Of a stretch of 64,000 bases of DNA, positions 148 through 58,899 are shown piece after piece. The position numbers were made by a program, and so were the translations under genes. The stretch lies in NCBI RefSeq assembly GCF_025685425.1, contig NZ_JAGTAS010000057.1:124001-188000 (forward strand). Direction: 5' to 3'. Numbering within the stretch: the first letter of the stretch is position 1; the number at the start of each line of letters is the position of its first letter. The notes below the pieces were generated by a model that saw only the letters and a program-made list of their open reading frames with translations, did not search any database and was not told where the DNA came from. The stretch comes from Terriglobus albidus (GTDB lineage Bacteria; Acidobacteriota; Terriglobia; Terriglobales; Acidobacteriaceae).

Positions 148-974
148 TGTCTGTTATGGAACACATCCCTCAGCCCACGTTCTTCGAGATGCTTGGCAGC
201 AGTCCAGCCATGGAGCGGCTGAGATTACAACTCGAGCGCATTGGGCCGCACTTCCGCACCATTCTGCTGACTGGTGAACCCGGCGTCGGCAAAGAACTTG
301 CAGCGCGTATCCTGCACCGGCTCAGTCCTGCCGCGAACGAGCCCTTTTTGGTCTACGACCCCGCTACAACCATTGAAGAATCGCTGGAGTCAGCGGCTCG
401 TGGAACGCTGTTCCTGGATGAGGTCGGCGATACCTCGTCCCCCGTTCAGGCGAAGCTGCTGCGTCTGATGCGTATGGTGGACACCCGCATTATCGCTGCT
501 ACGTATCGCAATCTACGGCATCAGGCCGCCATCGGTGAGTTCCGCTCAGACCTGTACTACCGCCTTTCAACGGTTGAGATCGAGGTGCCGCCGCTGCGGC
601 AGCGCATGGAAGATCTGCCATTGCTTGTGGAGCACATTCTCGCGTTCGCGGGCGAGCGCTATCATAAGCCGACAATGGAGCTCTCGAGTGAGGCAATGGA
701 AACACTTCGCGGCCACTCCTGGCCAGGAAACATTCGCGAACTCGAAAGCGTTCTGAGCAACGCAGCTATGCAGCAGGAAGGAAACGTTATTCATACGATC
801 TCTCTCCCGGAAGTGGCGTCTCCAGTTAAAGCAGATTCGCTGCCTGTCCGATTGGATGATCTGATCTCCCGCCACGTTCGTGGTGTGCTGGCACAGTGCG
901 AAGGCAATAAAGTACGCACAGCGGAGCTGCTCGGCATCAGCCGCTCGACGCTCTACCGGATGCTGGAGGCCTAG
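147..974 (+). CDS. Short AAA+/Fis-type transcriptional regulator lacking the GAFTGA loop
   Basis: This 275-residue protein resembles the AAA+ and DNA-binding parts of sigma-54 activators. Walker A GEPGVGKE is at about 43-50, Walker B GTLFLDEVGD at about 86-95, the motif LYYRL..PPLRQR at about 137-153, WPGNIRELES near 191-200, and a Fis-like helix-turn-helix (TAELLGISRSTLYRML) forms the C-terminus. There is no N-terminal receiver or sensor domain. Between Walker A and B the spacing is roughly 27 residues shorter than in the full-length NtrC-like protein at 38971-40407, and the GAFTGA loop that contacts sigma-54 is absent. It may therefore be a sigma-54-independent regulator, as in the TyrR group, or a degenerate activator. 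GGAGAAAG lies 6 bases before the ATG. The stop codon TAG is the first three bases of a repeat element. Confidence 0.85.
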   Translation: MSVMEHIPQPTFFEMLGSSPAMERLRLQLERIGPHFRTILLTGEPGVGKELAARILHRLSPAANEPFLVYDPATTIEESLESAARGTLFLDEVGDTSSPVQAKLLRLMRMVDTRIIAATYRNLRHQAAIGEFRSDLYYRLSTVEIEVPPLRQRMEDLPLLVEHILAFAGERYHKPTMELSSEAMETLRGHSWPGNIRELESVLSNAAMQQEGNVIHTISLPEVASPVKADSLPVRLDDLISRHVRGVLAQCEGNKVRTAELLGISRSTLYRMLEA

Positions 975-1088
975 AGCATTTTCCCTGTAGGTGTAGTGTA
1001 GGGCTTCCGCATCTATGGGCGTTTTCCGTAATGAAAACGCCGCTACACTCCTCTTCCGGGATACCCAGCAACAGGGAAAATGCGGTTA
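972..1088 (+). repeat. TA-flanked palindromic element, copy A
   Basis: The copy begins TAGAGCATTTTCCCTGT and ends CAACAGGGAAAATGCGGTTA, with the internal palindrome GGCGTTTTCC/GAAAACGCC. Its first three bases are the stop codon of the preceding regulator gene. It shares its terminal TA (1087-1088) with copy B. Confidence 0.9.
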
Positions 1089-1203
1089 GAGCATTTTCCC
1101 TGTAGGTGTAGAAGTAGGGCATCCGCATCTATGGGCGTTTTCCGCAATGAAAACGCCGCTGCACGCCCCTTCCGGGATACCCAGCAACAGGGAAAATGCT
1201 TTA
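1087..1203 (+). repeat. TA-flanked palindromic element, copy B
   Basis: A second copy in direct tandem with copy A and the same orientation (TAGAGCATTTTCCCTGTAGG ... GGGAAAATGCTTTA). The two differ at scattered positions, so they are not a very recent duplication. The copy lies between the regulator gene and the tRNA-Lys promoter region. Confidence 0.9.
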
Positions 1204-1264
1204 AGCGACGGATCGCTGTTTTTACAAACACCCTCATCAGCACCGTGTTCTCAACAGGGTCGAT

Positions 1265-1292
1265 TCGACTTGCGCGTGATCTGTGCTATAGT
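1265..1292 (+). promoter_or_regulatory. Possible sigma-70 promoter for tRNA-Lys
   Basis: TATAGT at 1287-1292 is a good -10 hexamer. TCGACT at 1265-1270 matches four of six positions of TTGACA with a 16-bp spacer. The predicted start, near 1299, would give a leader of about 50 nt before the mature tRNA. No other gene could use it. Confidence 0.35.
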
Positions 1293-1347
1293 CAATAAAG
1301 TGTTCAGCGCTGGCCAGCACATCGGCGAGGGCTGAGAACAACCCATC

Positions 1348-1423
1348 GGACGCGTAGCTCAATTGGCAGAGCATTCGACTCTTAATCGACAGGTTGAAGG
1401 TTCGATTCCTTCCGCGTCCACCA
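1348..1423 (+). tRNA. tRNA-Lys (anticodon CTT)
   Basis: This is a complete cloverleaf. The acceptor stem GGACGCG (1348-1354) pairs with CGCGTCC (1413-1419), followed by discriminator A and an encoded CCA (1421-1423). The D-arm is TAGCTCAATTGGCAGAGCA, the anticodon loop ACTCTTAATC carries CTT, and the T-arm contains GGTTCGATTCC. Anticodon CTT reads AAG (lysine). It is flanked by repeat copies A/B upstream and a membrane protein gene downstream. Confidence 0.97.
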
Positions 1424-1518
1424 TCTGGCCCATTCAGTGTTAACAACTTTCCAAGCGTTAGATCATGTATTTTCTCCTTTTAATTTGGGGTGGCGCGTGG
1501 TAGGTTGGTAGACCCTCC

Positions 1519-2682
1519 ATGGAAAGAGCGGGCGTTGCAATGCGCAGAGCTGCTGAGTTTCTTGTTGTGGCGATATGCACCCTTGCTTTTGCTTTGACTG
1601 CCATCGGAATATGCACGCTGCTGCTCACAGGAAATTCGGCGGGAAACCATGACTTCATCTCCTATTGGGCCGCTGGGCAGCAACTTATCCATCATCAAAA
1701 TCCCTATGATGCTGATGCCATTCTGCGGATCGAACACTCTGCCGGTTTCCCTGTCGGCTATCAGGCTCTCATCATGCGCAATCCGCCGTCGGCACTTCTG
1801 CTGACTCTTCCTCTCGGATTCGTGAGCTTGCGGACAGCCGCTCTGCTGTGGTCGCTTCTTTCGCTTTCCTGCTTGGTAGTTTCCGTCCGGCTGCTCCGCC
1901 CAAAAGGCCGCCTCGGCTTTCTCGGCTACACCTTTGCTCCCGCCCTAGCCTGTCTGCTGGCTGGGCAAACCTCCCTTCTTGTGTTGCTTGGTCTCGTTCT
2001 CTTTCTGCGTCTCCATGAAACCCGATACTTCCTGGCCGGTTGCTCTCTCTGGCTATGCGCCCTCAAGCCGCACCTGTTCCTACCGTTTGCAGTCGCGCTT
2101 ATCCTGTCGAGTCTTATCAAGAAACGATATTCACTCCTCGCCGGCACAGTCCTGGCGCTTGCAGTTAGCTCATCAGTTGCTCTGTACTTCGACCCTTCGA
2201 TATGGAACCACTACAGCCAAATGATGCACGGCCACGAACTGGAAGGCGAGTTCATCCCTTGCCTTAGTGTCGCCCTCCGATTCGCTTTGCACTCGCCGTG
2301 GATTCAATACTTACCCGCGTTGCTTAGCTCTATCTGGGCTGTCTTCTATTTCTCGAAGCACTCATGGACGGAACACGTAGGGCTCTTGCTTCTGGTCTCG
2401 GTTCTGCTCGCTCCCTACGCTTGGTTTACGGATCAAGCGGTTCTGATTGCGACGTTGCTCCCGGCCGCCTATCTCAGCTCCTCTCGCAGCATGATCGCCT
2501 TCCTTGCCCTCATCAGTGCAGCGATTGAGATTCAGACGCTTTTGGGAGTTTCGATGCACTCGTGGACTTACCTCTGGACCGCTCCCGCCTGGATTACCTG
2601 GTACTTCTTCGCGAGCAGTTATGCGATAAAAGTGAATGCCCCGCCAACCCTCGGCGCCGCAATCGCGACCGAGAACCCCTGA
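1519..2682 (+). CDS. Polytopic membrane protein, glycosyltransferase family 87 (DUF2029)-like
   Basis: This 387-residue protein is almost entirely hydrophobic, with about nine to eleven predicted membrane segments. After the first segment it has the block YWAAGQQLIHHQNPYD followed by a PP-containing loop (RNPPSALLLTLPLG). This arrangement is typical of GT87/DUF2029 proteins, which use polyprenyl-phosphate sugars to mannosylate or otherwise glycosylate envelope lipids. The acidic loop residues near the end of TM1 would be the catalytic site by analogy. No good ribosome-binding site precedes the ATG at 1519, and the ATG at 1540 is an alternative. It stands alone between the tRNA and a convergent gene. 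The donor and acceptor cannot be told from sequence. Confidence 0.75.
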   Translation: MERAGVAMRRAAEFLVVAICTLAFALTAIGICTLLLTGNSAGNHDFISYWAAGQQLIHHQNPYDADAILRIEHSAGFPVGYQALIMRNPPSALLLTLPLGFVSLRTAALLWSLLSLSCLVVSVRLLRPKGRLGFLGYTFAPALACLLAGQTSLLVLLGLVLFLRLHETRYFLAGCSLWLCALKPHLFLPFAVALILSSLIKKRYSLLAGTVLALAVSSSVALYFDPSIWNHYSQMMHGHELEGEFIPCLSVALRFALHSPWIQYLPALLSSIWAVFYFSKHSWTEHVGLLLLVSVLLAPYAWFTDQAVLIATLLPAAYLSSSRSMIAFLALISAAIEIQTLLGVSMHSWTYLWTAPAWITWYFFASSYAIKVNAPPTLGAAIATENP

Positions 2683-2753
2683 TGCCGGTGAAGTTGAGGA
2701 CATCTGCTACCTTGACCGTAAATTGTAGGGGGAGTTTCCACCCTCTGGTGAAG

Positions 2754-3479
2754 TCAACTAGATGCGAGGTATTTGCTTCTCACCAGCATGACCCTTACCA
2801 GCACGACCAGCAGAAAGAAACACTCGCCCCAAAGCGCGTGGTTATGAAAACGTGGCGTGCAGTACGCCCCGAGCACAGCGCCTAAAAAGAACATCCCGCA
2901 GATTTGAGCAAAAACCTTTGCCTGTTGCAGGTCTTCTGGGGATCGACCGGCAACGAGCCAAGCAAGCCAACTCCTCATCATTGTGTGCAGATTTCCGGTC
3001 GTAAATGTCGAGCTGTAACTCTGCTTGTTGACCTGGCGGAACGTGGCTACCTGTAGCGAAGCGGCAAATGCGATTGCCATAGAGATCCCGAGAGACGCAC
3101 CGTAGCTTGTAGAAAAGCTCAGGCATATAAGGATTGCAATCTCTAGCGTCAGTACGGCAGCTTCTGGGACGCGAACAGCGGTGGCAATGTACTCATGCTG
3201 CACCAGCCTTGCTGCCGCAATACCAAACAGGAACATCACCAGCACCAGGAAGTGACGCCCCGCATCCTGCCAGGCAACCGTCACCAGATCAATCGCGAGC
3301 AGGACGACATTCCCAGTCATTGCATTCGCGAAGACGTGGCCGTGCCCGATGTAAGTAAATGCATCGAGGTACCCGCCGGCGAATGCCAGCAGAGCGTGCG
3401 CCGATACACCTAGTCTCGTATCGGTTTCAGCGGCAAGGCTCGTTGTCACCAATCGATCCTTCCCTCCCGCACCGATCAT
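2754..3479 (-). CDS. YoaK/DUF1275 family membrane protein
   Basis: The protein has 241 residues from the internal ATG at 3479; an in-frame extension to 3521 looks non-coding. The hallmark GGYLDAFTYIGHGHVFANAMTGNVVLLAIDL block of DUF1275 follows the first hydrophobic stretch, and six membrane segments are predicted. The family is widespread, sometimes annotated as a transporter or permease, and has no firmly established substrate. It is convergent with the GT87-like gene (71-bp gap) and lies downstream of a histidine kinase on the same strand with a gap of about 100 bp. Co-expression with the kinase is possible but unproven. Confidence 0.8.
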   Translation of the reverse strand: MIGAGGKDRLVTTSLAAETDTRLGVSAHALLAFAGGYLDAFTYIGHGHVFANAMTGNVVLLAIDLVTVAWQDAGRHFLVLVMFLFGIAAARLVQHEYIATAVRVPEAAVLTLEIAILICLSFSTSYGASLGISMAIAFAASLQVATFRQVNKQSYSSTFTTGNLHTMMRSWLAWLVAGRSPEDLQQAKVFAQICGMFFLGAVLGAYCTPRFHNHALWGECFFLLVVLVRVMLVRSKYLASS

Positions 3480-3579
3480 ACTTGTGGCAGGCCGGCAATA
3501 GAACAGCAGCATAGCGAGCATACAGCTCTACCGCCGTATGCTCTAAGCAATCGTTCGCCTTGTCTCGAACCGAGACAAC

Positions 3580-5124: not shown

Positions 5125-5134
5125 CAATCCTGTC

Positions 5135-5250
5135 TAGAGCATTTTCCCTGTTGTTGGGGATCCCGAAGGGAACGTGCAGCGGCGTTTACATTGCAGAAAA
5201 CGCCCATAGATACAGATGCTCTGGCCTACACCTACAGGGAGGATGCTCTA
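5135..5250 (-). repeat. TA-flanked palindromic element, copy C
   Basis: The copy reads TAGAGCATTTTCCCTGTTG ... CAGGGAGGATGCTCTA, with the opposite orientation to copies A and B. It sits immediately upstream of the histidine kinase gene. The remaining 134 bp to the next gene (5251-5384) show no convincing gene or signal. Confidence 0.88.
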
Positions 5251-5384
5251 TGGCTCTTGAGTATACCCCGCAGTTGTTCGGAAAATGCCGCCCGGAATCA
5301 TACGACTCGCTAGCAATCATCGCGGACATCTTCATCTTTTCCGAGTACAGACAAGAGCACCTGGCCAAGAAATGCATCCGTTCT

Positions 5385-7955: not shown

Positions 7956-8173
7956 TGGGGGATGCTCCTCTTTGGGGTTCTTTGACTGAGACGCTAATCG
8001 CACCGGCGGGTTGTGGTTATTTCTGATAAAAAAGCGCTTCGCAATCGATAACGCAACCTCTGACCGTCCTTCTTTCATACACTTTTCGGCCAGAAACAAG
8101 GCCTTTCGACTATGCTTGTATGCAACAACGATCCCCCGCACACAGAAGCGATCTGAAAGGGTTTTAGAAGAAA

Positions 8174-9634
<1,461 letters not shown>

Positions 9635-9652
9635 TCTTCAGGTACGAATACA

Positions 9653-9688
9653 CGAAGGGCGAGGGCAGCGGCCTCGCCCTTCATTCTT
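9653..9688 (+). terminator. Rho-independent terminator of gnd
   Basis: GAAGGGCGAGG (9653-9663) pairs perfectly with CCTCGCCCTTC (9671-9681) over a 7-nt loop, followed by ATTCTTT. It lies between convergent genes and could act in both directions. Confidence 0.85.
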
Positions 9689-9718
9689 TACGAACAACGA
9701 ACTTGAAAAATGATCTAC

Positions 9719-11566: not shown

Positions 11567-11568
11567 TC

Positions 11569-13339: not shown

Positions 13340-13454
13340 TAGAGCATTTTCCCTGTTGCTGGGTATCCCGTAAGAGGAGTGCAGCGGCGTTTTCATTGCG
13401 GAAACGCCCATAGATACGGAAGCCCTACTCTATACCCACAGCGAAAATGCTCTA
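13340..13454 (-). repeat. TA-flanked palindromic element, copy D
   Basis: The copy reads TAGAGCATTTTCCCTGTTGC ... CAGCGAAAATGCTCTA. It lies between the divergent GWxTD and MacA-like genes, so it sits in or near the promoters of both. Confidence 0.9.
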
Positions 13455-15099: not shown

Positions 15100-15852
15100 A
15101 TGCTCACGGAGACCCGAGTGGAACCCACCCTGACCCCAAACGCCGACGGTCCACACGCCGGCGAAGTCATCGTTACCGACGACCTCTGGAAGACTTACGT
15201 CATGGGTGAGCAGGAAGTACATGCCCTCCGCGGCGTCAATCTCCGTATCCGTCACAACGAATACGTTGCGATTATGGGTCCCTCAGGTTCGGGCAAATCG
15301 ACCTTCATGAACCTGATCGGTTGCCTGGATTCTCCGACGCAAGGCCGCTACTGGCTGAACGGACATGATGTCTCTCAGCTCGACGATGATGAGCTGGCAC
15401 GCATCCGCAACAAAGAGATTGGGTTCGTCTTTCAAACCTTCAATCTGCTGGCTCGCGCCACGGCACTCCATAATGTCGAGCTGCCGCTGATCTACAACGG
15501 CACCCCGGCGGCGGAACGCATTGAACGCGCCAAGCAGGTATTGGAGTCTGTCGGCCTGGGTACACGTATGGACCATAAGCCGAACGAGATGTCCGGCGGT
15601 CAGCGGCAGCGCGTCGCTATCGCACGAGCCCTGGTCAATTCACCCTCCATCATCCTGGCAGACGAGCCGACCGGCAACCTCGATTCAAAAACCGGCGACG
15701 AGATCATGGCCTTGTTCGATGAGCTGCATGCTCGCGGCAATACGATCGTTCTGGTCACGCACGAACCCGATATTGCCGAGTTCGCGCATCGTATCGTTAC
15801 TATCCGTGACGGCCAGATCGCCAGCGACAACGAGAGCAACCGCGTCCGCTAG
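15100..15852 (+). CDS. ABC transporter ATP-binding protein, MacB/LolD type
   Basis: A 250-residue ATPase: Walker [11 protein letters not shown]-loop [11 protein letters not shown], signature [15 protein letters not shown], Walker [14 protein letters not shown]-loop [18 protein letters not shown] and FNLL are typical of the MacB/LolD/FtsE group. The ATG at 15100 has GGAGAG with an 8-base gap; an upstream in-frame TTG at 15085 overlaps that site and is unlikely. The ATPase is encoded alone, without the usual C-terminal fused permease domain. The stop codon TAG forms the start of repeat copy E. It probably forms an operon with the preceding adaptor. Confidence 0.93.
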
Positions 15853-15965
15853 ACCATTTTCACTGTAGGTGTAGTGCAGGGCTTCCACATCTCTGGGCGT
15901 TTTCCGCAATGAAAACGCCGCTGCACGCCCTTTCCGGGATATCCAGCAACAGTGAAAATGCTCTA
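15850..15965 (+). repeat. TA-flanked palindromic element, copy E
   Basis: The copy begins TAGACCATTTTCACTGTAGG and ends AGTGAAAATGCTCTA. The A-to-C change in the left terminus is not mirrored on the right, but the C/G change in CACTGT/ACAGTG is compensated, so pairing is preserved there. Its TAG ends the ABC ATPase gene. Confidence 0.9.
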
Positions 15966-18725: not shown

Positions 18726-18880
18726 GGCAACACCTCCCCAAAATCATCCTGTTTATAAGACTCGCCTCGCCATGCCGTCGTTGCTTTCTGAAAAGTCATC
18801 GTCTTGTCCCTCGGTTGTACTCCATGCTCGATAACTCGCGGTCTTACTGTGTACCTCGCTGTAAAGGACACACGCGCATC

Positions 18881-19495
18881 TTGTTGAAGCTCCACCGTCT
18901 TGCTCTCTGTCTTGTTCTCACCGGCACAGTACTCACAACGTCTTCTTCAGCACAGGCAACCGCCACGGCGTCCGCGACTTCAAACCTTGAGCTCTTCGGC
19001 GGGGTTTCGAAGGTGTACACCGGCATACAAGGCCAGAACACAAGCTTTACGGCCGGTGGAGATTTTATTCTTCGCCGTTTCGCGGGGTTCGTGCCATCGG
19101 CTGAGGTCCGTGGAACGTACGCATTCCGGAAAGGCAACATTGCCGCGGAGAAAAATATCCTCGGAGGCATCAAACTCACGCGAGAGTTCGGTTCCGTCCA
19201 CCCATACGTTGACTTCCTCGCCGGCCGCGGCTCCATCAACTTCCCCAATAAGACCTACGGCGGCAGTCTATATGAGTATGTTTCCGGTACCGTACTGTCT
19301 CCCGGAGGCGGTATCGACTTCTCCCTCGACTCACACTGGTCGGCCAAACTCGACTTCCAGTACCAGCGCTGGGGTGTTCCAGTCACCGGCTCCGGATCAA
19401 TCTACTCCAGGTCAGTCACGGCCGGCGTAGAGTATCGTTTCAACTTTGACTCACTCGGCCGCCGGCACAAAAAGACACGCGACTACAAGGACTAG
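18881..19495 (+). CDS. Small outer-membrane beta-barrel protein
   Basis: About 204 residues from a TTG at 18881; the frame is open from 18815. The signal peptide LKLHRLALCLVLTGTVLTTSSSAQA is followed by an eight-strand-like barrel: LELFGGVSKVYTG, FTAGGDFILRRFAGFVPSAEVRGTYAF, GGIKLTREFGSVHPYVDFLAGRGS, GGGIDFSLDSHWSAKLDFQYQRWG, and a final strand YSRSVTAGVEYRFNF ending on an aromatic. This is the OmpA/OmpW-like small barrel layout; the function is unknown. The start is uncertain because no ATG precedes the signal peptide closely. The stop TAG is the first three bases of a truncated repeat copy (F). Confidence 0.8.
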   Translation: MLKLHRLALCLVLTGTVLTTSSSAQATATASATSNLELFGGVSKVYTGIQGQNTSFTAGGDFILRRFAGFVPSAEVRGTYAFRKGNIAAEKNILGGIKLTREFGSVHPYVDFLAGRGSINFPNKTYGGSLYEYVSGTVLSPGGGIDFSLDSHWSAKLDFQYQRWGVPVTGSGSIYSRSVTAGVEYRFNFDSLGRRHKKTRDYKD

Positions 19496-19523
19496 AGCAT
19501 TTCCCTGTTGCTGGTATCCCGGC
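19493..19523 (-). repeat. Fragment of the TA-flanked palindromic element, copy F
   Basis: TAGAGCATTTCCCTGTTGC followed by TGGTATCCCGG matches one end of the family and then diverges. The central palindrome and the other end are missing. It supplies the TAG stop of the barrel protein gene. Confidence 0.75.
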
Positions 19524-19568
19524 GGTTCGCCGCAAGTATGTTTTTCCGGAATCGAATACACTTGGCCC

Positions 19569-20210: not shown

Positions 20211-20215
20211 TTGAG

Positions 20216-22893: not shown

Positions 22894-23277
22894 ATGAGTG
22901 ATCACCCCCCCATCTCGACCGTCGATCAGACCTTCAATGGCAATCGCAAGCTGATACGCCCTTCCCTGGTAGGCCGTATGCTGCGCCGCGGCAACGTGCG
23001 TCATGAAGAACCACTCTCGAATGCAGCGCTGCAGGAGAATCATCCTCCCGGCGAAAGCAGTCACGCCGAAGCTTTCTACTTTCAGAAGCAGATTCAGCAA
23101 AAGACCGAGATGGTTGTCGTACTCGAAGACGGTGAACGGCTGGATGGACAGATCGAGTGGTACGACCGTGGCGTCATCAAGCTCTGCACCACATCAAGGC
23201 AGCGGGTGCTGATCTACAAGTCGTCCGTCAAGTACATCTACAAAGCCAGCGAAGTTCCTACGTCGACCCTGCTTTAG
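22894..23277 (+). CDS. Hfq-like (Sm fold) RNA chaperone with N-terminal extension
   Basis: The 127-residue protein has an unstructured N-terminal part (about 1-58) rich in polar residues. A C-terminal Sm-like core follows: AFYFQKQIQQKTEMVVVLEDGERLDGQIEWYDRGVIKL (Sm1) and RVLIYKSSVKYIYK (Sm2). In canonical Hfq, Sm2 carries the YKH motif; here it reads YKS. The pattern of Q-x-Q, GxxLxGxIxxYD and YKxxxxxI supports Hfq ancestry, and variants of this shape occur in acidobacteria. It would bind small RNAs and mRNAs as a ring, but the changed Sm2 and long N-terminus leave this uncertain. It stands alone. The stop TAG is formed by repeat copy G. Confidence 0.75.
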   Translation: MSDHPPISTVDQTFNGNRKLIRPSLVGRMLRRGNVRHEEPLSNAALQENHPPGESSHAEAFYFQKQIQQKTEMVVVLEDGERLDGQIEWYDRGVIKLCTTSRQRVLIYKSSVKYIYKASEVPTSTLL

Positions 23278-23390
23278 AGCGTTTTCCCTGTTGCTGGGTG
23301 TTTCCGGAACGGACGTGAGCGGCGTTTTCATTGCGGAAAACGCCCATCCATGAGGAGACCCTACTCGACACCTGCAGGGAAAATCCTTTA
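23275..23390 (-). repeat. TA-flanked palindromic element, copy G
   Basis: The copy reads TAGAGCGTTTTCCCTGTTGC ... CAGGGAAAATCCTTTA. It lies between the convergent Hfq-like and Sua5 genes. Its left end supplies the Hfq-like stop codon. Confidence 0.9.
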
Positions 23391-37075: not shown

Positions 37076-37822
37076 ATGGGAGCAATTTACATTCTGTGGC
37101 TGCGCGAATTGAAGCGGTATGTCCGCTCCCGGGTACAGGTGGTCGCCTCGCTGGCGCAACCCTGTCTGTACCTGTTCGCATTCGGCTTTGGATTTGGCGC
37201 TGTCTTTCGGCAGGCTGGCCGCGGCAGTTACCTGCAATTCATGGCTCCGGGCGTCGTGGCTATGACAGTGCTTTTCTCTGCTGTTTTTTCAGGAATCGCA
37301 ATGTTGTGGGACCGCCAGTTCGGCTTCCTGAAAGAGACCCTCGTAGCACCTGTCTCACGGCTACAGATCATGATCGGCCGTACGCTTGGAGGTGCGACAG
37401 TGGCCATCATTCAGGGAACGATCGTCCTTTGCGTCTGCCTTCTGGCCGGCTTCCGCCCGCAAAGCTGGCTGGCGTTGCCAGGTGCGTTTCTCTTCCTCTT
37501 TCTCATTGCCCTGGTCTTTGCCGCACTGGGCACAGCGCTCGGCTCGGCGATCAAAGACATGCAGGGATTCCAGATCGTGATGAATTTTCTGGTCATGCCT
37601 ATCTACTTTCTGTCGGGAGCCTTGTTCCCTCTCGACAATCAGAAGATCGGCATGAGGATCGCGAATCAGATTGATCCACTGTCATACGGAGTCGACGGGT
37701 TGAGAGGAATGCTCACCAATGTGTGGCACTTCACACCATCCACGAACCTAATGGTCCTGACGGTGGTCGCGGGGGCCTTCCTCTTGCTGGGCGCTTACCT
37801 GTTTTCTAAGATCGAAGTCTAG
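37076..37822 (+). CDS. ABC-2 type permease of drug-export system
   Basis: The 248-residue protein starts at ATG 37076, three bases after the ATPase stop, with GGAGG nine bases upstream. Six membrane segments are predicted. The conserved ABC-2 block FSAVFSGIAMLWDRQFGFLKETLVAPVSRLQIMIGRTLGG and FLVMPIYFLSGALFPLDN (between TM5 and TM6) are present. It forms the membrane channel with the upstream ATPase. The pump direction (export) is from family knowledge; substrate unknown. The last bases overlap the TetR GTG start by one base. Confidence 0.93.
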   Translation: MGAIYILWLRELKRYVRSRVQVVASLAQPCLYLFAFGFGFGAVFRQAGRGSYLQFMAPGVVAMTVLFSAVFSGIAMLWDRQFGFLKETLVAPVSRLQIMIGRTLGGATVAIIQGTIVLCVCLLAGFRPQSWLALPGAFLFLFLIALVFAALGTALGSAIKDMQGFQIVMNFLVMPIYFLSGALFPLDNQKIGMRIANQIDPLSYGVDGLRGMLTNVWHFTPSTNLMVLTVVAGAFLLLGAYLFSKIEV

Positions 37823-38421
37823 TGGCACGCACGCGAAGTCAGATAGCGCACCAAAAGGTCATCGAGGCCGCAATCTCGCTCTTTGCAGAGCGCGGCCTCG
37901 ATGCCACCAGCATGGACACCATCGCTGAGGTCTCGGGGGTCAGCAAAGCAACCATCTACAAGCACTGGCCGAACAAAGATGCGCTCTGCCTGGAAGCTCT
38001 GAGCTATCTTGTCGGGAGTGATATCAAGGTTCCCGTACCAGATACCGGAGATCTGCGTGCTGATCTCATTGCACGCCTGAGCTATCAACCCGCCCCGGAC
38101 CGTGCTCTTCTGCGCGAGCGAATTATGCCCCATGTCCTTGCGTATGCCTCCAGGAACCTGGAATTCGGCAGAGCCTGGCGGGCGCGCGCCATGTCCCCTG
38201 TCATCACTGCCCTGCAGGAATGGATACAGCGCGAGCAGCAGCGTGGAACGCTGGTCCCAACGATCGATGTAGAGTCGGCGATTTCTTTGCTTATGGGACC
38301 ACTGCTCTATCGCAATATCTTTCACAAGCGCGAACCCGGTAGCCAGGGTCAATTCGCACCTCACCTGGAACGGCATATCGCTGAGGCGTTTCTCGCCCTA
38401 TATGCGCTGCCCAGACGTTAG
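37822..38421 (+). CDS. TetR-family transcriptional repressor
   Basis: The 199-residue protein has an N-terminal helix-turn-helix: VIEAAISLFAERGLDATSMDTIAEVSGVSKATIYKHWPNKDALCLEAL (about 10-60), the TetR signature. A helical ligand-binding domain follows. The GTG start overlaps the permease stop TAG by one base, so it is in the same operon as the exporter and would bind the operator at 36248. Stop TAG is the first three bases of repeat copy H. The effector is unknown. Confidence 0.93.
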   Translation: MARTRSQIAHQKVIEAAISLFAERGLDATSMDTIAEVSGVSKATIYKHWPNKDALCLEALSYLVGSDIKVPVPDTGDLRADLIARLSYQPAPDRALLRERIMPHVLAYASRNLEFGRAWRARAMSPVITALQEWIQREQQRGTLVPTIDVESAISLLMGPLLYRNIFHKREPGSQGQFAPHLERHIAEAFLALYALPRR

Positions 38422-38534
38422 AGCATTTCCCTGTAGGTGTAGAGGAGGGCTTCCGCAATCTATGGGCGATTTTCCGCGATGAAAACGCTGCTGCACACCC
38501 CTTCCGGGGTACCTGGCAGCAGGGAAATACTTTA
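38419..38534 (+). repeat. TA-flanked palindromic element, copy H
   Basis: The copy reads TAGAGCATTTCCCTGTAGG ... CAGCAGGGAAATACTTTA. It sits between the convergent TetR and rhodanese genes. One T is lost in both inverted arms (TTTCCC/GGGAAA), a compensated change. Confidence 0.9.
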
Positions 38535-43010: not shown

Positions 43011-43120
43011 CAGAGTATTTCCCTGTTGCTGGGTATCCCGGAAGGGCGTGCAGCGCGTTTTCATTGCGGAAAACGCCCATAGATGGGGATGCTTTGGACT
43101 AAACCAACAGGGAATATGCT

Positions 43121-43123
<3 letters not shown>
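43011..43123 (-). repeat. TA-flanked palindromic element, copy I
   Basis: The copy reads CAGAGTATTTCCCTGTTGC ... CAACAGGGAATATGCTCTA. The left end has lost the TA. The right end supplies the TAG stop codon of secA (minus strand) at 43121-43123. It lies between convergent lipoprotein and secA genes. Confidence 0.88.
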
Positions 43124-46105
<2,982 letters not shown>

Positions 46106-49682: not shown

Positions 49683-49714
49683 GGCTTAGAGACCCTCTCG
49701 GGCGTCTAACCTGT

Positions 49715-50185
49715 GTGTACGTGAGCCGAGCCGCGAAAAAAAGCCGACGCCGTCATGCAGCCAAGGAAGCTGCGAAGCAGATTCGTCTCGTAGTCGCCGC
49801 GCTGATCCTGCGCGAGACGGAGACGGGCCGCGAAGTCCTTGTCTGTCAGCGGCGTCCGGAACAGGCGATGGCCCTCAAATGGGAGTTCCCCGGCGGCAAG
49901 ATCGAGGCCGGCGAATCTCCCGAGGCGGCCCTGCGCCGCGAGCTGAACGAAGAGCTCGGCATCGAGGCTGTCATCGGCCCACGTATTACCCGCCTGCGTC
50001 ACAATTATCGCAACGGCGGGGCCGTCGACCTTCAGTTCTTTGCTGTCCATGAGTTCAAAGGAGAGCTGGAGAACCTTATTTTCAATGACATGCAGTGGAC
50101 TTTGCTATCCCGGCTACCGGAGTTCGACTTTCTGGCCGCGGATCTGACTCTGATCCAGGACCTCGCCTCCGGCAAGCTGCTTTAG
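49715..50185 (+). CDS. NUDIX hydrolase, MutT-like
   Basis: The 156-residue protein has the NUDIX box GGKIEAGESPEAALRRELNEELGI. WEFPGGK precedes it, as in MutT 8-oxo-dGTP diphosphatases. The N-terminus is a basic extension (SRAAKKSRRRHAAKEAAK) of about 22 residues not typical for MutT. Start GTG at 49715 is tentative. The stop overlaps the convergent NRAMP gene by four bases. Sanitising oxidised nucleotides is the likely role. Confidence 0.88.
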   Translation: MYVSRAAKKSRRRHAAKEAAKQIRLVVAALILRETETGREVLVCQRRPEQAMALKWEFPGGKIEAGESPEAALRRELNEELGIEAVIGPRITRLRHNYRNGGAVDLQFFAVHEFKGELENLIFNDMQWTLLSRLPEFDFLAADLTLIQDLASGKLL

Positions 50186-53759: not shown

Positions 53760-53826
53760 CCTGTTCGCAGTCTACCCAAGCATTCAGATGCGCACCACCA
53801 GTGCTATGTAATAGAACCAAAAAGAG

Positions 53827-53858
53827 AAAGCCGGCACTCGAAAAGAGAGCCGGCTTTT
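53827..53858 (-). terminator. Hairpin terminator downstream of the M13 peptidase gene
   Basis: AAAGCCGGC (53827-53835) pairs with GCCGGCTTT (53849-53857) over a 13-nt loop. On the minus strand it is followed by the T-rich TCTCTTTTT. It separates the M13 gene (with repeat copy J) from the MgtE-like operon. Confidence 0.65.
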
Positions 53859-53876
53859 GGAGATTCAGGCGTGCGT

Positions 53877-53992
53877 TAGAGCGTTTTTCCTGTTGCTCGG
53901 TATCCCGGGAGGAGCGTGCAGCGGCGTTTTCATTGAGGAAAACGCCCATAAATGCGGAGACCCTACGCTACACCTACAGGAAAAATGCTCTA
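53877..53992 (-). repeat. TA-flanked palindromic element, copy J
   Basis: The copy reads TAGAGCGTTTTTCCTGTTGC ... TACAGGAAAAATGCTCTA. Its right end supplies the TAG stop of the M13 peptidase gene (minus strand, 53990-53992). It belongs to a subgroup with copies K and L that spell TTTTTCCTGT. Confidence 0.9.
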
Positions 53993-56053
53993 CCACACCT
54001 TGCAGACCGTCTCCTTCACCATCGGCTGGCCTTTTTTGCATCCGAAGGCTGTGGCAAATTCGGGCATATTCGTCACGATACCGTTGATACGTGCATAACC
54101 CGGGGAGTGTGGATTGGTAATCGCGCTCACCCGCAGGTTTTCCGGCCGCTGGTTCTCGCAGGCCCACTGGGCAAACCCGATAAAGAACCGCTGGTCAGGG
54201 GTGAATCCCTCCACTGGTGCAAGCCGCTGATTTCCTGTCGCCTTCTTCCAGGCGATATACGCGATCAGCGTTCCCCCCAGATCAGCTACATCTTCGCCGC
54301 TGGTCAGCTTCGAGTTGATCTTAATGTCGTCCACGATGGTGTAGGTAGCAAACTGATCGCGCAGGCAATTGATCTGCTTTTCAAAACCTTCGGCGTCTTC
54401 CTTCGTCCACCAGTCCTTCAGGTTTCCTGCTCCGTCGAACTGTCGCCCTTCATCGTCAAAGGCGTGCGTCAGCTCGTGGCCGATGGTTGATCCTGTATTG
54501 CCATAGTTGGGAGCGTCGTCGAGCTTGGCGTCATACAACGGCGGCTGCAGCACACCGGCCGGGAAGTTGATGTCGTTCATCTGGGGGTTGTAATAGGCAT
54601 TGACGGTCGGCGGCGTCATGTCCCACTCGTTCTTGTCCACCGGCTTACCCACCTTGGCCCACTGACGCTGGTCCTCGAAAAGAGAGGCCCGCAGCATGTT
54701 GCCGAAGTAATCGTCGGCTTTGACCTCCAGCTTGGAATAGTCGCGCCACTTGTCCGGATACCCGATCTTGTTCCGGACCAGGTGCAGCTTTTCGATCGCA
54801 CGCTGTTTGGTGGCATCGCTCATCCAGGTCAAGCCTTTGATCTCTCCAGCCATGGCCTGCTCGATCTCATCCGTCATCTTCACCGTCTTGGCTTTGGTAT
54901 CCGGACCGAAGGTCCGGCGGACAAACTCCTGTCCCAGAGCTTCGCCAAGCATGTTGTCCACCTGGCGGGTGCAGCGCTTCCACCTGGGCTGCTGTTGCTG
55001 CACGCCGCGCAGATACTTCGAATAGAAGTTGAACTGAGCTTCATCGAAGTCCTTCGACAGTGAGGGAGCCGCGGCGGTAATCGCATGGAAGCGCAGGTAC
55101 GCCTTCAAGGCCGGCAACGGCTCCGCTGTCAGCTCGGTCTGGAGTGCTTTCTGGAAGTCAGGCTGGTTCACATTCAGCGACGTCACGGTCGGGACATTCT
55201 GCGTTGCAAAATAGCGGTTCCAATCGATCGAGGGCGTCAGCTTGCCCAAATCCTCGACCGACATCTTGTGGTACTCCTTGTATGGATCGCGGCGTTCGAC
55301 GCGGGTCAGCGAGGCCTTTGCGAGAGCGGTTTCGATCTTCATAATCGCGGCAGCGTCAGTCTCCGCCGCCGCCTTCGGTTCTCCGGCAAGCGTCAACTGC
55401 TGTGCGATGTAGGCGACATACTTTGCCCGGGTCTCTTCGCTCTTGGCGTCGGTCTTGGTGTAGTAGTCGCGGTCGGGCAATCCCAGGCCTCCCGCAGCGA
55501 TAAATGCGATCACCTGCGAGGAGTCGCCAAGATCCTGCCCCGAGCCGGAGCCGAAGAAGAAGTTCCCTACCTGTTCGTGATGCAGCACTGGAAGATAGGC
55601 CACCAGTTCTTCACGCGTCTTCAAGCCATCGATGCGGGCAAGCAGAGGCTTCAGAGGCCCCAGACCGCGCTTGTTAATGGAATCTTCATCCATGCAGGCG
55701 CCAAAATAATCGCCGATCTTCTGCTGACTGGGTGTGCGATTGCCGGCCTTCGAGGCATCCACCAGGATGCCCCACAGAAACTGGAGATTGTCCTGCGCCA
55801 GCTTGCCATAGACGCTCCATCCGGCCTGGTCCGCTGGAATCGGATTGCTCTTCATCCATCCGCCGCAGGAGTACTGGTAGAAGTCCACGCACGGATCGAC
55901 CGACTTATCCATATCGGCGACATTCAAGCTGGGGGAGTACGGCATCGCCTGCAAAGGCTTCAGCGATGTCGATTGCGCGGCTGGAAATTGCGCAAAAACT
56001 GCACCTGCCAAGCCACACCACAATGCCGCCGCCAAACCAAAGCGCAAACGCAT
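53990..56053 (-). CDS. M13-family zinc metallopeptidase (neprilysin/PepO-like)
   Basis: 687 residues from ATG 56053 (GGAG upstream); an in-frame extension reaches into repeat K. The signal peptide (LRFGLAAALWCGLAGAVFAQ) implies export. The N-terminal helical domain contains CVDFYQYSCGGWMKSNPIP. The catalytic domain contains NAYYNPQMNDINFPAG, IGHELTHAFDDEGRQFDG (HExxH) and SGEDVADLGG (Glu ligand, GENIAD variant), ending in CKVW as in eukaryotic M13. It would cleave oligopeptides outside the cytoplasmic membrane. The C-terminal tetrapeptide is conserved in the family. Bounded by repeats J and K. Confidence 0.95.
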   Translation of the reverse strand: MRLRFGLAAALWCGLAGAVFAQFPAAQSTSLKPLQAMPYSPSLNVADMDKSVDPCVDFYQYSCGGWMKSNPIPADQAGWSVYGKLAQDNLQFLWGILVDASKAGNRTPSQQKIGDYFGACMDEDSINKRGLGPLKPLLARIDGLKTREELVAYLPVLHHEQVGNFFFGSGSGQDLGDSSQVIAFIAAGGLGLPDRDYYTKTDAKSEETRAKYVAYIAQQLTLAGEPKAAAETDAAAIMKIETALAKASLTRVERRDPYKEYHKMSVEDLGKLTPSIDWNRYFATQNVPTVTSLNVNQPDFQKALQTELTAEPLPALKAYLRFHAITAAAPSLSKDFDEAQFNFYSKYLRGVQQQQPRWKRCTRQVDNMLGEALGQEFVRRTFGPDTKAKTVKMTDEIEQAMAGEIKGLTWMSDATKQRAIEKLHLVRNKIGYPDKWRDYSKLEVKADDYFGNMLRASLFEDQRQWAKVGKPVDKNEWDMTPPTVNAYYNPQMNDINFPAGVLQPPLYDAKLDDAPNYGNTGSTIGHELTHAFDDEGRQFDGAGNLKDWWTKEDAEGFEKQINCLRDQFATYTIVDDIKINSKLTSGEDVADLGGTLIAYIAWKKATGNQRLAPVEGFTPDQRFFIGFAQWACENQRPENLRVSAITNPHSPGYARINGIVTNMPEFATAFGCKKGQPMVKETVCKVW

Positions 56054-56085
56054 ATCGTTCTTTCTCCTTTTTAGACACTTCATCC

Positions 56086-56200
56086 TAAGCATTTTTCCTG
56101 TTGCTGGGTATCCGGGAAGAGGAATGCAGCGGCGTTTTCATCGGGGAAAACGCCCATAAATGCGGAGACCCTACGCTACACCTACAGGAAAAATGCTCTA
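56086..56200 (-). repeat. TA-flanked palindromic element, copy K
   Basis: The copy reads TAAGCATTTTTCCTGTTGC ... TACAGGAAAAATGCTCTA. It lies 33 bp upstream of the M13 start codon, between divergent genes, and shares most of its sequence with copy J. Confidence 0.88.
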
Positions 56201-56388
56201 TCGCGGTGAAAGGGCATACGCTCCCCCGGAGAGGAAGGTTCCCTGCTGGGGTTGATTGACCCTCCGATTCCAATTTCTTGACTTTTGCTTCCCTGGGAAG
56301 CAAACTGCCTTTGCAAGCACCTTGGACGAAACTCCGGCTCCTCTGGCGTCGGCGGCTCCAAAATCAGCACCTCGCCTGCAGGAGTAAT

Positions 56389-56829
56389 TTGGCCGACTCG
56401 ATAACAAGCCGCGCCAGCTTCACCCTCGACTCGACGCTCGACACCGTCAATCGGCTCGAGCTGGAGGCTGAGCAATTCGCCCAGCGTGCAGGATTTTCCG
56501 AGGACGATATCCCCAACATTGCGATGGCCGTGCGTGAAGCCGCAGTGAATGCAGTGCTTCATGGCAATAACTACAGCACGGAGAAGCATGTAAGCGCGTC
56601 CTTTGAAACCACCTCATCGGATCTGGTCATCAAGATTGCTGACCAGGGGCCGGGACTTGACCCTGACACCATTCCCGACCCGCTCGCGCCAGAGAATATC
56701 CTGCGCGGATCGGGACGAGGTATCTTCCTCATCCGCGCTTTTATGGATGAGGTACACTTCCGGCAGACCCATCCCGGGACGGAACTGACCCTGATCAAAC
56801 ACCGCACTCCCGCACCAGCGGGCAATTAA
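56389..56829 (+). CDS. RsbW-like anti-sigma factor / serine kinase (HATPase)
   Basis: 146 residues from TTG 56389, preceded by AGGAG at a 4-base gap; the longer frame from 56278 has no conserved sequence. HATPase landmarks: N-box MAVREAAVNAVLHGNNYS, G1 KIADQGPGLDP, and G2 RGSGRGIFLIRAFMDEV. It belongs to the GHKL anti-sigma group that phosphorylates STAS partners. The partner STAS gene lies 17 bp downstream. The usual order (STAS first) is reversed. No sigma factor gene is adjacent. Confidence 0.88.
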   Translation: MADSITSRASFTLDSTLDTVNRLELEAEQFAQRAGFSEDDIPNIAMAVREAAVNAVLHGNNYSTEKHVSASFETTSSDLVIKIADQGPGLDPDTIPDPLAPENILRGSGRGIFLIRAFMDEVHFRQTHPGTELTLIKHRTPAPAGN

Positions 56830-56846
56830 CTAGGAGGAATCACCAC

Positions 56847-57194
56847 GTGAGCATGAAAGTCAGCACCCGCCAGGTAGACGGCGTCACTATCCTGGATCTG
56901 AGCGGCCGCATCACTCTCGGAGAAGGCAGCGTCGTGTTGCGCGACGCGATCCGCGACCAGCTCGCTAAGGGCAATAAGAGCGTTCTGTTGAACCTGGGCG
57001 ACGTCAGCTATATCGACTCCTCGGGTATCGGCGAGCTCGTCAGCTCCTTCACCACCGTCAAGAACTCCGGTGGCGAGCTGAAACTGCTGAACCTGACCAA
57101 GAAGGTCCACGACCTGCTCCAGATCACGAAGCTCTACACCGTCTTCGACGTCAAGGACGATGAAGCTTCGGCCGTCGCTTCATTCACGAAGTAG
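56847..57194 (+). CDS. STAS-domain anti-anti-sigma factor (RsbV/SpoIIAA type)
   Basis: A 115-residue single STAS domain: TRQVDGVTILDLSGRITLGEGS (strand-turn), VLLNLGDVSYIDSSGIGELVSSFTTVKNSGGELKLLNLTKKV. The phosphorylatable Ser is in DSSGIG. GTG at 56847 or ATG at 56853 may start; AGGAGG precedes. It would sequester the upstream RsbW-like kinase when dephosphorylated, freeing a sigma factor. A strong terminator follows. Confidence 0.93.
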   Translation: MSMKVSTRQVDGVTILDLSGRITLGEGSVVLRDAIRDQLAKGNKSVLLNLGDVSYIDSSGIGELVSSFTTVKNSGGELKLLNLTKKVHDLLQITKLYTVFDVKDDEASAVASFTK

Positions 57195-57233
57195 CCGGTT
57201 CCCTGATCTGCACTGGGACTCTGACGCAACGAT

Positions 57234-57268
57234 AAAGGCCGCCCTGACGGGCGGCCTTTCTGTTTTAT
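57234..57268 (+). terminator. Rho-independent terminator of the RsbW/RsbV pair
   Basis: AAAGGCCGCCC (57234-57244) pairs perfectly with GGGCGGCCTTT (57249-57259) over the tetraloop TGAC, followed by CTGTTTTATT. It also separates the convergent LemA gene. Confidence 0.92.
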
Positions 57269-57281
57269 TGATCTAGCGGCG

Positions 57282-57854
57282 CTACTTGCCAAAATCCACT
57301 TTCGGCGCGGTCTTCGAGCCCGGATCGGCTGCGTAGTAACCCGTCTTCGGAGTGAACCCGGCCATACCCGCCCAGATGGAGTGCGGGAACTGCTGGATGT
57401 ACACGTTGTAGTCCTTGATGGAATCGTTATAGCGGCGGCGCGCAACGGCAATGCGGTTTTCCGTACCGCTCAACTCATCTTCCAAGCGCTGGAACTGCTC
57501 ATTGCTCTTCAGCTCCGGATAGGTCTCCTGCAGGCGGGTCAACGGCAGCAGTGCCACGCTCAAACGGTCGTTCGCCGCCAGCTTTTCATCGGGTGTTCTT
57601 GCGGTCAGCAGGCCGGCGCGTGCGTTGGAGATCGCCGTCAGCACGTCCAGCTCCTGCTTGGCGTAACCCTTCACGGTCGCCACCAGGTTCGGGATCAGAT
57701 CAGCGCGGCGCTGCAGGTTCACATCGATCTCAGAGAAGGCTGCTGTAACCTCCTCGTTCTTCTGCACCATCGTGTTTTTGGAGCCCGTATAGCTGCCGAA
57801 TGCCAACACCACAATCAGTACAACGGCTACCAGCCCAATCAGAAAACCTTTCAT
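57282..57854 (-). CDS. LemA-family protein
   Basis: 190 residues from ATG 57854, with GGAGACGAGG upstream; the frame remains open to 57896. One N-terminal membrane span (FLIGLVAVVLIVVLAFGSYTG), then NTMVQKNEEVTAAFSEIDVNLQRRADLIPNLVATVKGYAKQE, the LemA motif, and helical ENRIAVARRRYNDSIKDYNVYIQQFP. LemA proteins sit in the cytoplasmic membrane with helices outside; the role is unclear. It is followed downstream in family fashion by a TPM gene (upstream on this strand), a widespread pairing. Confidence 0.93.
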   Translation of the reverse strand: MKGFLIGLVAVVLIVVLAFGSYTGSKNTMVQKNEEVTAAFSEIDVNLQRRADLIPNLVATVKGYAKQELDVLTAISNARAGLLTARTPDEKLAANDRLSVALLPLTRLQETYPELKSNEQFQRLEDELSGTENRIAVARRRYNDSIKDYNVYIQQFPHSIWAGMAGFTPKTGYYAADPGSKTAPKVDFGK

Positions 57855-57908
57855 TTGCCTCGTCTCCTGTTTCTCCGGAGGCTTGCCTCCGGCCAACTCT
57901 GAAAATCT

Positions 57909-58790
57909 TTACCAGTCTCCGCTGGAGCCACCGCCACCGGAGTCACCACCACCAAAACCACCGAAGCCGCCGCTGGAATCGCCTCCATCGCTGCCACCAC
58001 CCCAGCCGCCACCACCATCGCCTCGGCCACCCCACTCACGGCGTCCACCGCCGCTGCCCAGAATGTTGCCGAGAATTAGCCAGGGCAGCCAACCACCGCC
58101 GCCACCACCGCCGAAACCACCAGGACCACCGCCCCCGAAGATACGGCGCAGAATGCTCACAACAATCAGGAAGAGGATAAAGCCAACGACCAGAACACCG
58201 ATGCCGATGCCGCCACCGGAGTGTACCGTCGCACGATGATAGGTATGTACTGTCTGCGGAGGATTGAGCGTGACTCCAGCGTCGTCCGCAATTATCTGTC
58301 CGATCTCTGTCACACCGAGACGAATCGCTTCGTCCCACTGGTTCTGCTGCAGCAGCGGCCGCATCGCCCGTCCGATATCGCCAGTTTTGGCATCGGGAAG
58401 AATCCCTTCGAGACCGAAGCCAACTTCGATACGCCGCTTGCGATCCTGCGTGGCAAACAGCAACAGGATGCCACGATCTTTGTATTTCGGATCCTTAGGT
58501 CCAATGCCCCAGGTATGGAAGAGATCGTTCGCGTAGTCTTCGATGGGACGGTCGTCGAGGGACTTGATGATGACCACGGCAATCTGCGCGTGCGCCTGCC
58601 GCTCCACCTCGCCTGCATACTGATTGATCTGTGCTTTGGCCGGATCGGACAATACGCCCGCCAGATCGGTTACGTAAGCCGTCGGCTTGGGAAGGTCGCT
58701 TACCTTCTCTCCCACCGCCGCCAAGGGCGCCAGCACGATCAGCAGCGCCCACATCCACGATCTGGCCCATCGGCCCATATCTGTCATCAT
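57909..58790 (-). CDS. TPM-domain membrane protein (YgcG-like) with Gly-rich tail
   Basis: 293 residues. The signal peptide (MWALLIVLAPLAAVGEK) is followed by the TPM domain (about 30-165): YVTDLAGVLSDPAKAQINQYAGEVERQAHAQIAVVIIKSLDDRPIEDYANDLFHTWGIG, LLFATQDRKRRIEVGFGLEGILPD. A membrane span (GIGVLVVGFILFLIVVSILRRIF) then leads to a Gly-rich tail with Trp. This is the form that pairs with LemA. No clear ribosome-binding site is seen: repeat copy L ends 3 bp upstream of the ATG, so initiation may use AGGA in the element. Confidence 0.9.
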   Translation of the reverse strand: MMTDMGRWARSWMWALLIVLAPLAAVGEKVSDLPKPTAYVTDLAGVLSDPAKAQINQYAGEVERQAHAQIAVVIIKSLDDRPIEDYANDLFHTWGIGPKDPKYKDRGILLLFATQDRKRRIEVGFGLEGILPDAKTGDIGRAMRPLLQQNQWDEAIRLGVTEIGQIIADDAGVTLNPPQTVHTYHRATVHSGGGIGIGVLVVGFILFLIVVSILRRIFGGGGPGGFGGGGGGGWLPWLILGNILGSGGGRREWGGRGDGGGGWGGGSDGGDSSGGFGGFGGGDSGGGGSSGDW

Positions 58791-58792
58791 TC

Positions 58793-58899
58793 TAGAGCAT
58801 TTTTCCTGTTGCTAAGTATCCCGGAAGGCGGCGTTTTCATTGCGGAAAACGCCCATAGATGCACAAGCCCTGCACTACACCTACAGGAAAGATGCTCTA
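58793..58899 (-). repeat. TA-flanked palindromic element, copy L
   Basis: The copy reads TAGAGCATTTTTCCTGTTGC ... TACAGGAAAGATGCTCTA. It is shorter than the other full copies because part of the left half is missing (CCCGGAAGGCGGCG). It ends 3 bp before the TPM gene start codon. Confidence 0.9.

What the first reader, a model, noticed from the sequence alone, without database searches (positions are those of the whole stretch)
972..58899. A TA-flanked, 115-bp palindromic element family (11 full copies and one fragment) resembling a MITE
Twelve intergenic copies (972, 1087, 5135, 13340, 15850, 19493 partial, 23275, 38419, 43011, 53877, 56086, 58793) share TIRs TAGAGCATTTTCCCTGT, a central GGCGTTTTC/GAAAACGCC palindrome and, in nearly every full copy, TA at both outer ends. 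They occur in both orientations (GTAGG side first in A, B, E, H; TTGCTGG side first in the others). Several changes are compensated in the opposite arm (for example TTTCCC/GGGAAA in copy H), as expected if hairpin structure is kept. TA ends fit target duplication by an IS630/mariner-type transposase acting on a miniature element. An alternative is a REP-like sequence mobilised by another enzyme. No transposase lies in the window.
Basis: partly seen in the sequence, partly recalled or inferred. Interest (0 to 1): 0.8.

Follow-up and report, generated by a model that had tools for sequence, protein, structure and literature searches.

The report
Stop-codon-landing mini-transposon of soil acidobacteria
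A 112-bp hairpin-forming DNA element has spread to hundreds of places in some acidobacteria, landing at the letters TA and very often inside a gene's stop codon, which it rebuilds as it lands; it is a new family of a known kind of small mobile DNA.

Summary
In detail: the window has 11 full copies and one fragment of a 112-bp palindrome bounded by TA. The host (an Acidobacteriaceae genome) has hundreds. A relative about 89% identical gives 23 precise empty sites, 17 still TA, so the element is mobile and duplicates TA. Targets favour CTAG; RTAY contexts were used 0 of 3939 times. This resembles IS630/Tc1-mariner integration, but no autonomous partner was found and the TIR was absent at the five IS630-type loci seen. 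Four of 19 same-genus genomes carry it in quantity; full-length relatives at 75-86% identity occur in three other genera. Paired changes confirm arm symmetry.

New here: 48 of 130 insertions sit in the TA of a TAA/TAG stop codon, odds ratio 10.6 over other non-coding TAs. Both ends read TA-GAGC, so either orientation rebuilds TAG. Target sequence and gene-end tolerance explain most of this; about 2-fold remains against matched TAs within 30 bp downstream. Tandem arrays share an odd junction, best explained by one microhomology duplication whose multimers then moved as units. Verdict: a new MITE family with an unusual landing habit.

The parts
972..1086 (+). full copy 1 of a head-to-tail array; its TAG (972-974) is the stop codon of ORF 147-974
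1087..1203 (+). full copy 2 of the array; junction AAAATGCGGTTAGAGC
5135..5250 (-). full copy; G002 lacks it and has a single TA (alignment; the automatic rule filed this one under 'other')
13340..13454 (-). full copy; clean empty site in G002 (TTTTAGTG)
15850..15965 (+). full copy in the stop codon of ORF 15100-15852
19493..19534 (.). 5' fragment (TIR plus about 25 bp); its TAG ends ORF 18815-19495
23275..23390 (-). full copy in the stop codon of ORF 22894-23277; shared with G002
38419..38534 (+). full copy in the stop codon of ORF 37822-38421; one base lost from each arm (TTTCCC/GGGAAA)
43011..43123 (-). full copy; its right end is the stop codon of ORF 43121-46105 (-), whose C-terminus reads [15 protein letters not shown], SecA-like (motif recalled); left TA mutated to CA
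53877..53992 (-). full copy in the stop codon of ORF 53990-55945 (-); shared with G002
56086..56200 (-). full copy, left end shortened (TAAGC); empty site in G002 (CCTATCG)
58793..58899 (-). full copy with an internal deletion; empty site in G002 and in G017 (ATTCTACG)

Best explanation
It is a non-autonomous miniature inverted-repeat transposable element (MITE): 112 bp, 15-17 bp terminal repeats, no gene. SHOWN: it inserts at a TA that is duplicated, prefers CTAG and YTAR targets, has hundreds of copies, differs in presence between related genomes, and often lies in TAA/TAG stop codons. INFERRED: an IS630/Tc1-mariner-type transposase, encoded elsewhere or now lost, binds the GAGCATTTTCCCTG ends, excises the element and pastes it at TA. 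The stop-codon bias is inferred to come mainly from the YTAR preference, the harmlessness of gene ends and the element's ends: the first base after TA is G at both ends, so a stop codon is rebuilt as TAG in either orientation. Tandem arrays are inferred to come from one microhomology-mediated duplication (TGC of the element end against TTGC in the flank at G000:C39:464512), whose multimers later transposed as units.
For: Clean empty sites: 23, of which 17 TA, 3 TG, 2 CA, 1 CG (examples). Target use, insertions per non-coding or occupied TA: CTAG 24/540, CTAA 32/1372, TTAA 5/491, ATAA 16/1722, CTAC 14/1846, ATAG 12/2008, GTAA 8/1788, GTAC+ATAT+ATAC 0/3939. IS630 is reported to prefer TA in CTAG (Tenzen & Ohtsubo 1991, seen only as a title in the reference list of PMC2170065), and ISY100 of the same family duplicates TA (abstract and passages of that paper). 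Stop-codon TA 48/1129 against 3' 1-10 bp 5/449, 3' 11-30 bp 10/849, coding 6/47742. Named MAG contigs: 35 of 89 units have an ORF running in with TA as codon start, 33 of them TAA/TAG with the element removed, against 4 and 5 in the other frames; genera g18 and g20: 7 of 22 against 0 and 0 (at least two copies are in both sets). Arrays of 4, 3 and 2 copies each lie at one empty site in G002 reading TA, CA and TA; junctions GCGAT/GCGAC/GCGGT and founder flank GTTGCGAT.
Against: No transposase-bearing element with these ends was found. DDE_3 (PF13358) hits occur in 3 of 7 genomes searched, five loci, none with the TIR. A pattern for TIRs that do not continue as the MITE gave 69 places in 4 of 5 genomes; 30 of them as loci and 5 more as fetched regions were inspected, none was an autonomous element, one end (L223) stayed without a partner, and the other 34 were not looked at. 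Other transposase families were not searched. The nearest pair of single copies still differs at 3 positions, so activity is not fresh. 19 of 130 units lack TA at the scored end. In named MAG contigs CTAG is not the commonest target and one of 57 is ATAT (counts without rates).
Confidence: 0.77

Rival explanations
1. True stop-codon targeting: the integration complex, or a host factor tied to translation termination or gene-end structure, steers the element to TAA/TAG stop codons beyond local sequence and tolerance.
For: Stop TA against TA within 30 bp downstream: odds ratio 3.8 raw, 2.1-2.6 after context matching (p 0.008-0.036); within 60 bp, 2.6-3.6 (p <= 0.0013). Already present in young insertions: 8 of 23 clean-empty units against 7.6% of non-coding TAs (p 2e-4; p 0.025 against a context-corrected share of 16%).
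Against: Most of the 10.6-fold excess goes when sequence context and nearness to gene ends are matched. No mechanism is known. Gene calls are my own.
Confidence: 0.2
2. The bias is produced by selection: insertions elsewhere at gene ends are purged, or hairpins abutting stop codons are kept because they stabilise or process the mRNA.
For: Stop-type share is 8/23 in clean-empty, 6/17 in altered-empty and 8/15 in shared rows, a trend in that direction. ERIC hairpins are reported to alter mRNA stability (PMC2229807, passages).
Against: The trend was not tested for significance and is small; shared rows can count a locus once per genome. Young insertions already show the bias.
Confidence: 0.35
3. 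A REP/RAYT-type element moved by a HUH transposase.
For: Palindrome, high copy number, mostly intergenic.
Against: 2-bp TA duplication at precise empty sites, 112-bp unit, CTAG preference. RAYT genes were not searched for.
Confidence: 0.04
4. A structured RNA or regulatory element inherited vertically, not mobile.
For: Full-length conservation at 75-86% in three other genera, strong folding of four copies (z -3.4 to -6.0) and arm covariation.
Against: Empty sites at orthologous loci; no match in 14 of 19 same-genus genomes and one weak partial match in a further one; no Rfam match in the window at gathering score other than a tRNA.
Confidence: 0.03

Closest known systems
ERIC/IRU (RU-1) of enterobacteria
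   Same: 127 bp, stable stem-loop, TA at the ends and duplicated, several genera, mobilising transposase unknown (PMC2229807 and PMC2759123 passages; one ERIC copy read).
   Different: Different sequence and ends (that ERIC copy begins TATACTC). A stop-codon excess for ERIC was not tested, because the K-12 genome was not searchable.
RUP of Streptococcus pneumoniae
   Same: 107 bp, TA targets, proposed IS630-Spn1 transposase (PMC2229807 passages).
   Different: RUP shares TIRs with a known IS; here no such IS was found.
Correia/NEMIS of Neisseria
   Same: 107-155 bp, long TIR, TA ends, transcript hairpins (PMC2229807 passages).
   Different: Different host; it has an IHF motif in one form. Landing pattern not compared.
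BOX repeats of S. pneumoniae; QMITE1/2 of Coxiella
   Same: Some copies overlap gene ends: in 36 cases BOX encodes the stop codon of a CDS (PMC3049150 passage); QMITEs overlap C-termini by 1-50 bp (PMC5896051 passages).
   Different: In the passages seen no rate per available site is given; QMITE overlaps vary in length, whereas here the overlap is exactly the natural stop codon and is counted per TA.
IS630 / ISY100
   Same: TA duplication; CTAG preference reported for IS630 (PMC2170065: abstract, passages, one reference title).
   Different: Autonomous. The IS630-type copies in G000/G002 lack this TIR; by eye their ends read AATGTCCTATT / AAAGTCCTATT.

Membership tests
MITE | short (<600 bp), no transposase gene | tested here: met
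   net insertion 112-114 bp in 103 of 122 single units
MITE | terminal inverted repeats | tested here: met
   15-17 bp, arms covary
MITE | target-site duplication with precise empty sites | tested here: met
   23 clean empty sites, 17 TA
MITE | high copy number, presence/absence polymorphism | tested here: met
MITE | mobilised by an autonomous element with the same ends | tested here: inconclusive
   none found; not all places and not all transposase families examined
IS630/Tc1-mariner derivative (considered, not filed) | TA target duplicated | tested here: met
IS630/Tc1-mariner derivative (considered, not filed) | CTAG target preference (reported for IS630) | tested here: met
   one search agrees only in part
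IS630/Tc1-mariner derivative (considered, not filed) | TIR shared with an IS630-type transposase element in the host | tested here: not met
   TIR with up to 4 mismatches absent at all five DDE_3 loci
ERIC | ERIC sequence | tested here: not met
   ends and sequence differ by eye; no formal alignment
REP/RAYT | 20-40 bp unit without target duplication | tested here: not met
   112 bp, TA duplication; unit size from the abstract start of PMC3733652, lack of duplication recalled
Rfam RNA family | match to the element | tested here: not met
   window: only tRNA at gathering score; L013, L240, L246 at E<=1: one weak hit, outside the element

The most novel reading that the evidence does not exclude
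A bacterial transposable element whose integration is steered to translation stop codons and whose ends are built to regenerate the stop (TA-G at both ends), making gene ends a safe harbour, as some eukaryotic transposons have safe harbours.
Probability: 0.2. Interest if true: 0.82.

Novelty: new member of a known kind. Interest (0 to 1): 0.52.

Why it matters
It gives a large, measurable natural insertion set for a TA-specific MITE in a phylum for which my searches listed no paper on such an element. It puts a rate on a stop-codon landing habit that in the papers I saw is only noted case by case (BOX, QMITE). It makes 'targeting or tolerance?' directly testable, points to transposition of multimers, and warns that TAG stop codons and 3' hairpins at many genes here come from the element.

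Tried and rejected
IS630 as the direct partner: found, but without the TIR. IS5 group (recalled: some subgroups have TA/TNA targets): DUF4096 in 1 of 5 genomes, G012, with ends GGGTGTATCGACA. Longer element with the same ends: the 375-380-bp cases at G002:353744 and 4498175 are MITE copies carrying a second nested palindrome; the pair at G002:2356910/2357505 is two separate MITE copies. Plasmids, phages and viral contigs: no match. Text search for GAGCATTTTC: the 20 titles shown of 68 are unrelated. ERIC control for stop-codon bias: not possible. The first marker chosen for C28 synteny had no clear ortholog; CheA worked. I first read the G000:C39:459929 site as a tyrosine codon; it is TAG in both alleles. 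The first stop-codon null (7.7% of TAs) was too generous and was replaced by context- and distance-matched tests.

Rows dropped: 24 partial hits of 166 were left out of the 130 units. Of these 130, 44 had no synteny and 31 were 'other' in the orthology table (one of them, 5135, is empty by alignment); 19 were not TA at the scored end and drop out of the per-TA rates. 10 of 99 units near contig ends were dropped.

Full report
WHAT IS THERE. The window lies in G000:C39:124001-188000 of a 6.1-Mb, 58-contig genome. The element is TA-[112 bp]-TA, consensus TAGAGCATTTTCCCTGTAGGTGTAG...GGGCGTTTTCCGCAATGAAAACGCC...CAGCAACAGGGAAAATGCTCTA. Eleven full copies and one fragment are in the window. Genome-wide, the covariance-model search scored only 150 of 3139 first-look candidates, and all 150 were full-length hits. 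In 1.364 Mb of G000 there are 121 hits, 104 of them full, which scales to roughly 540 per genome. Density is uneven: 1 in the first 120 kb of C39, 59 in the next 544 kb fetched. In G002 (6.4 Mb, one contig) the TIR with up to 1 mismatch occurs 363 times, with a reversed-pattern control of 0.

WHO HAS IT. Among the 19 genomes of the genus, G000, G002, G012 and G015 carry it in quantity, G010 has one weak partial hit, 14 have none at E<=1e-5. In 298 genomes drawn from the order, 24 match at E<=1e-8, in 6 of 70 genera, with at most two matches scored per genome: full-length at 75-86% identity in g18, g20 and g27, partial in g16 and g35. By 100% identical stretches G015 is MAG Bin6.3 (Acidobacteriaceae), G116 (g18) is Acidobacteriales 59-55 and G065 (g20) is Granulicella sp. 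clean312. No match in plasmid, phage or viral collections.

MOBILITY. G002 is about 89% identical to the window's region in synteny. Alignments show TA-[element]-TA against a single TA, for example CATCATTC-TA-CGCTTT at 58793, also empty in G017. Over 130 insertion units in G000+G002, 23 are clean empty in the other genome (TA 17, TG 3, CA 2, CG 1), 17 empty with an altered junction, 15 rows shared, 31 other, 44 without synteny. Copies are not fresh: among 122 single units the closest pair differs at 3 positions, and the means from consensus are 12.5 (G000) and 16.2 (G002) columns.

TARGET. Per non-coding or occupied TA, CTAG is used at 44 per 1000, CTAA 23, TTAA 10, ATAA 9, CTAC 8, ATAG 6, GTAA 4.5, and GTAC/ATAT/ATAC 0 of 3939. 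IS630 is reported to prefer CTAG, and the related ISY100 duplicates TA (PMC2170065: abstract, passages, reference title). In named MAG contigs, 57 of 99 units have TA at both ends and 35 at one; the targets of the 57 are CTAA 15, CTAC 12, ATAG 11, CTAG 11, ATAA 3, TTAA 3, ATAT 1, GTAA 1. In g18/g20, 16 of 22 have both TAs: CTAA 6, CTAG 4, ATAG 2, CTAC 2, GTAA 1, ATAA 1 (counts, no rates).

STOP CODONS. With the element removed and genes re-called by my own codon model, insertions per TA are: stop-codon TA 48/1129, 3' 1-10 bp 5/449, 3' 11-30 bp 10/849, 3' 31-100 bp 13/1817, 5' within 100 bp 13/2908, other non-coding 16/7629, coding 6/47742. The Mantel-Haenszel odds ratio against all other non-coding TA is 10.6 raw and 5.1-5.3 with local context matched. 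In a first set of 86 units, 37 abutted a stop; with the element removed the codon is TAA 18, TAG 18, TAC 1, so nearly all are natural stops, not truncated genes. Orientation to the gene is mixed (30 same, 18 opposite), and both element ends give TAG. Other sets agree: named MAG contigs 35 of 89 in the stop frame against 4 and 5 in the other two (2 of the 35 would be TAC); g18/g20 7 of 22 against 0 and 0. These two sets share at least two copies; neither overlaps the G000/G002 regions at 96% identity over 600 bp. Against TAs within 30 bp downstream the excess is 3.8-fold raw and 2.1-2.6-fold context-matched (p 0.008-0.036); within 60 bp, 2.6-3.6-fold matched. So most of the bias is YTAR preference plus gene-end tolerance, with a modest unexplained rest. 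Young insertions already show it (8 of 23).

STRUCTURE. In 30 copies (29 distinct) from three genera the outer stem has 8 of 17 pairs with two-sided changes and the central hairpin 2 of 9; the other three helices have none. The whole has 30 such cells against 7.8 shuffled and 3-8 when slid; the count of further pair types does not exceed shuffles. Within G000/G002, 62 two-sided against 18.8 shuffled. This shows that the arms stay complementary; it does not tell TIR co-recognition from hairpin function or from arm-to-arm copying.

ARRAYS. Eight arrays in the G000 stretches (2-4 copies) are all head to tail. Internal junctions read AAAATGC-GAT/GAC/GGT-TAGAGC or close variants (325486 reads GCGATAGAGC), not the GCTCTAGAGC expected from repeated insertion. 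At C39:464512 the left flank is GTTGCGAT; slippage at TGC between that flank and the element's AAAATGC end would produce the junction. The other array flanks differ. Arrays at 265262, 268760 and 274735 sit on single empty sites in G002, reading TA, CA and TA. I infer one founder duplication and transposition of multimers; amplification in place after a dimer arrived is not excluded.

ENZYME. Not found; see the Against line and Tried and rejected. The IS630 reading therefore rests on target behaviour, not on shared ends.

LITERATURE. Searches listed no paper on such an element in Acidobacteria and none on systematic stop-codon landing by a TA MITE; the listings are partial and most subscription papers are not in the library. 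Seen: PMC2229807, PMC2759123, PMC3049150, PMC5896051 (passages), PMC2170065 (abstract and passages), PMC8841776 (passages; MITE occurs only in its reference list), PMC10969869 (term search, no passage); others as listings with abstract starts only.

Noticed in passing
G002:C1:353744-354118 (L189) and 4498175-4498554 (L181): A second, longer palindromic element (about 265-270 bp, ends AGGGTGTGTCATCAAACTC) is nested at the same spot inside two MITE copies; its ends resemble the IS5-type ends GGGTGTATCGACA seen in G012 (L149).
   Followed up: partly
L218:1487-1517; L221 about 1960-1985; L139 (G000:C39:113488): Mini-palindromes of about 20-35 bp that are little more than the two TIRs joined, apparently internal-deletion derivatives.
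   Followed up: partly
G000:C42 and C55 contig ends: MITE tandem arrays lie at contig ends, suggesting that arrays are longer than assembled and break the assembly.
   Followed up: no
L005:1501-1616 (typical copy): The commonest net insertion is 114 bp (38 codons; 52 of 122) and three of six frames are open.
   Followed up: partly
window 1348-1423: tRNA-Lys(CTT) gene about 150 bp downstream of the 972/1087 array.
   Followed up: no
G002:C1:4262158: Left flank CCAGCGATTAGAGC looks like the remnant of a deleted upstream array copy.
   Followed up: no
genus g1 genomes: Two of the four carriers are the largest genomes (6.1 and 6.4 Mb; the other two 4.3 and 5.2), the rest 2.7-5.2 Mb; the element itself is far too small to explain this.
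   Followed up: no
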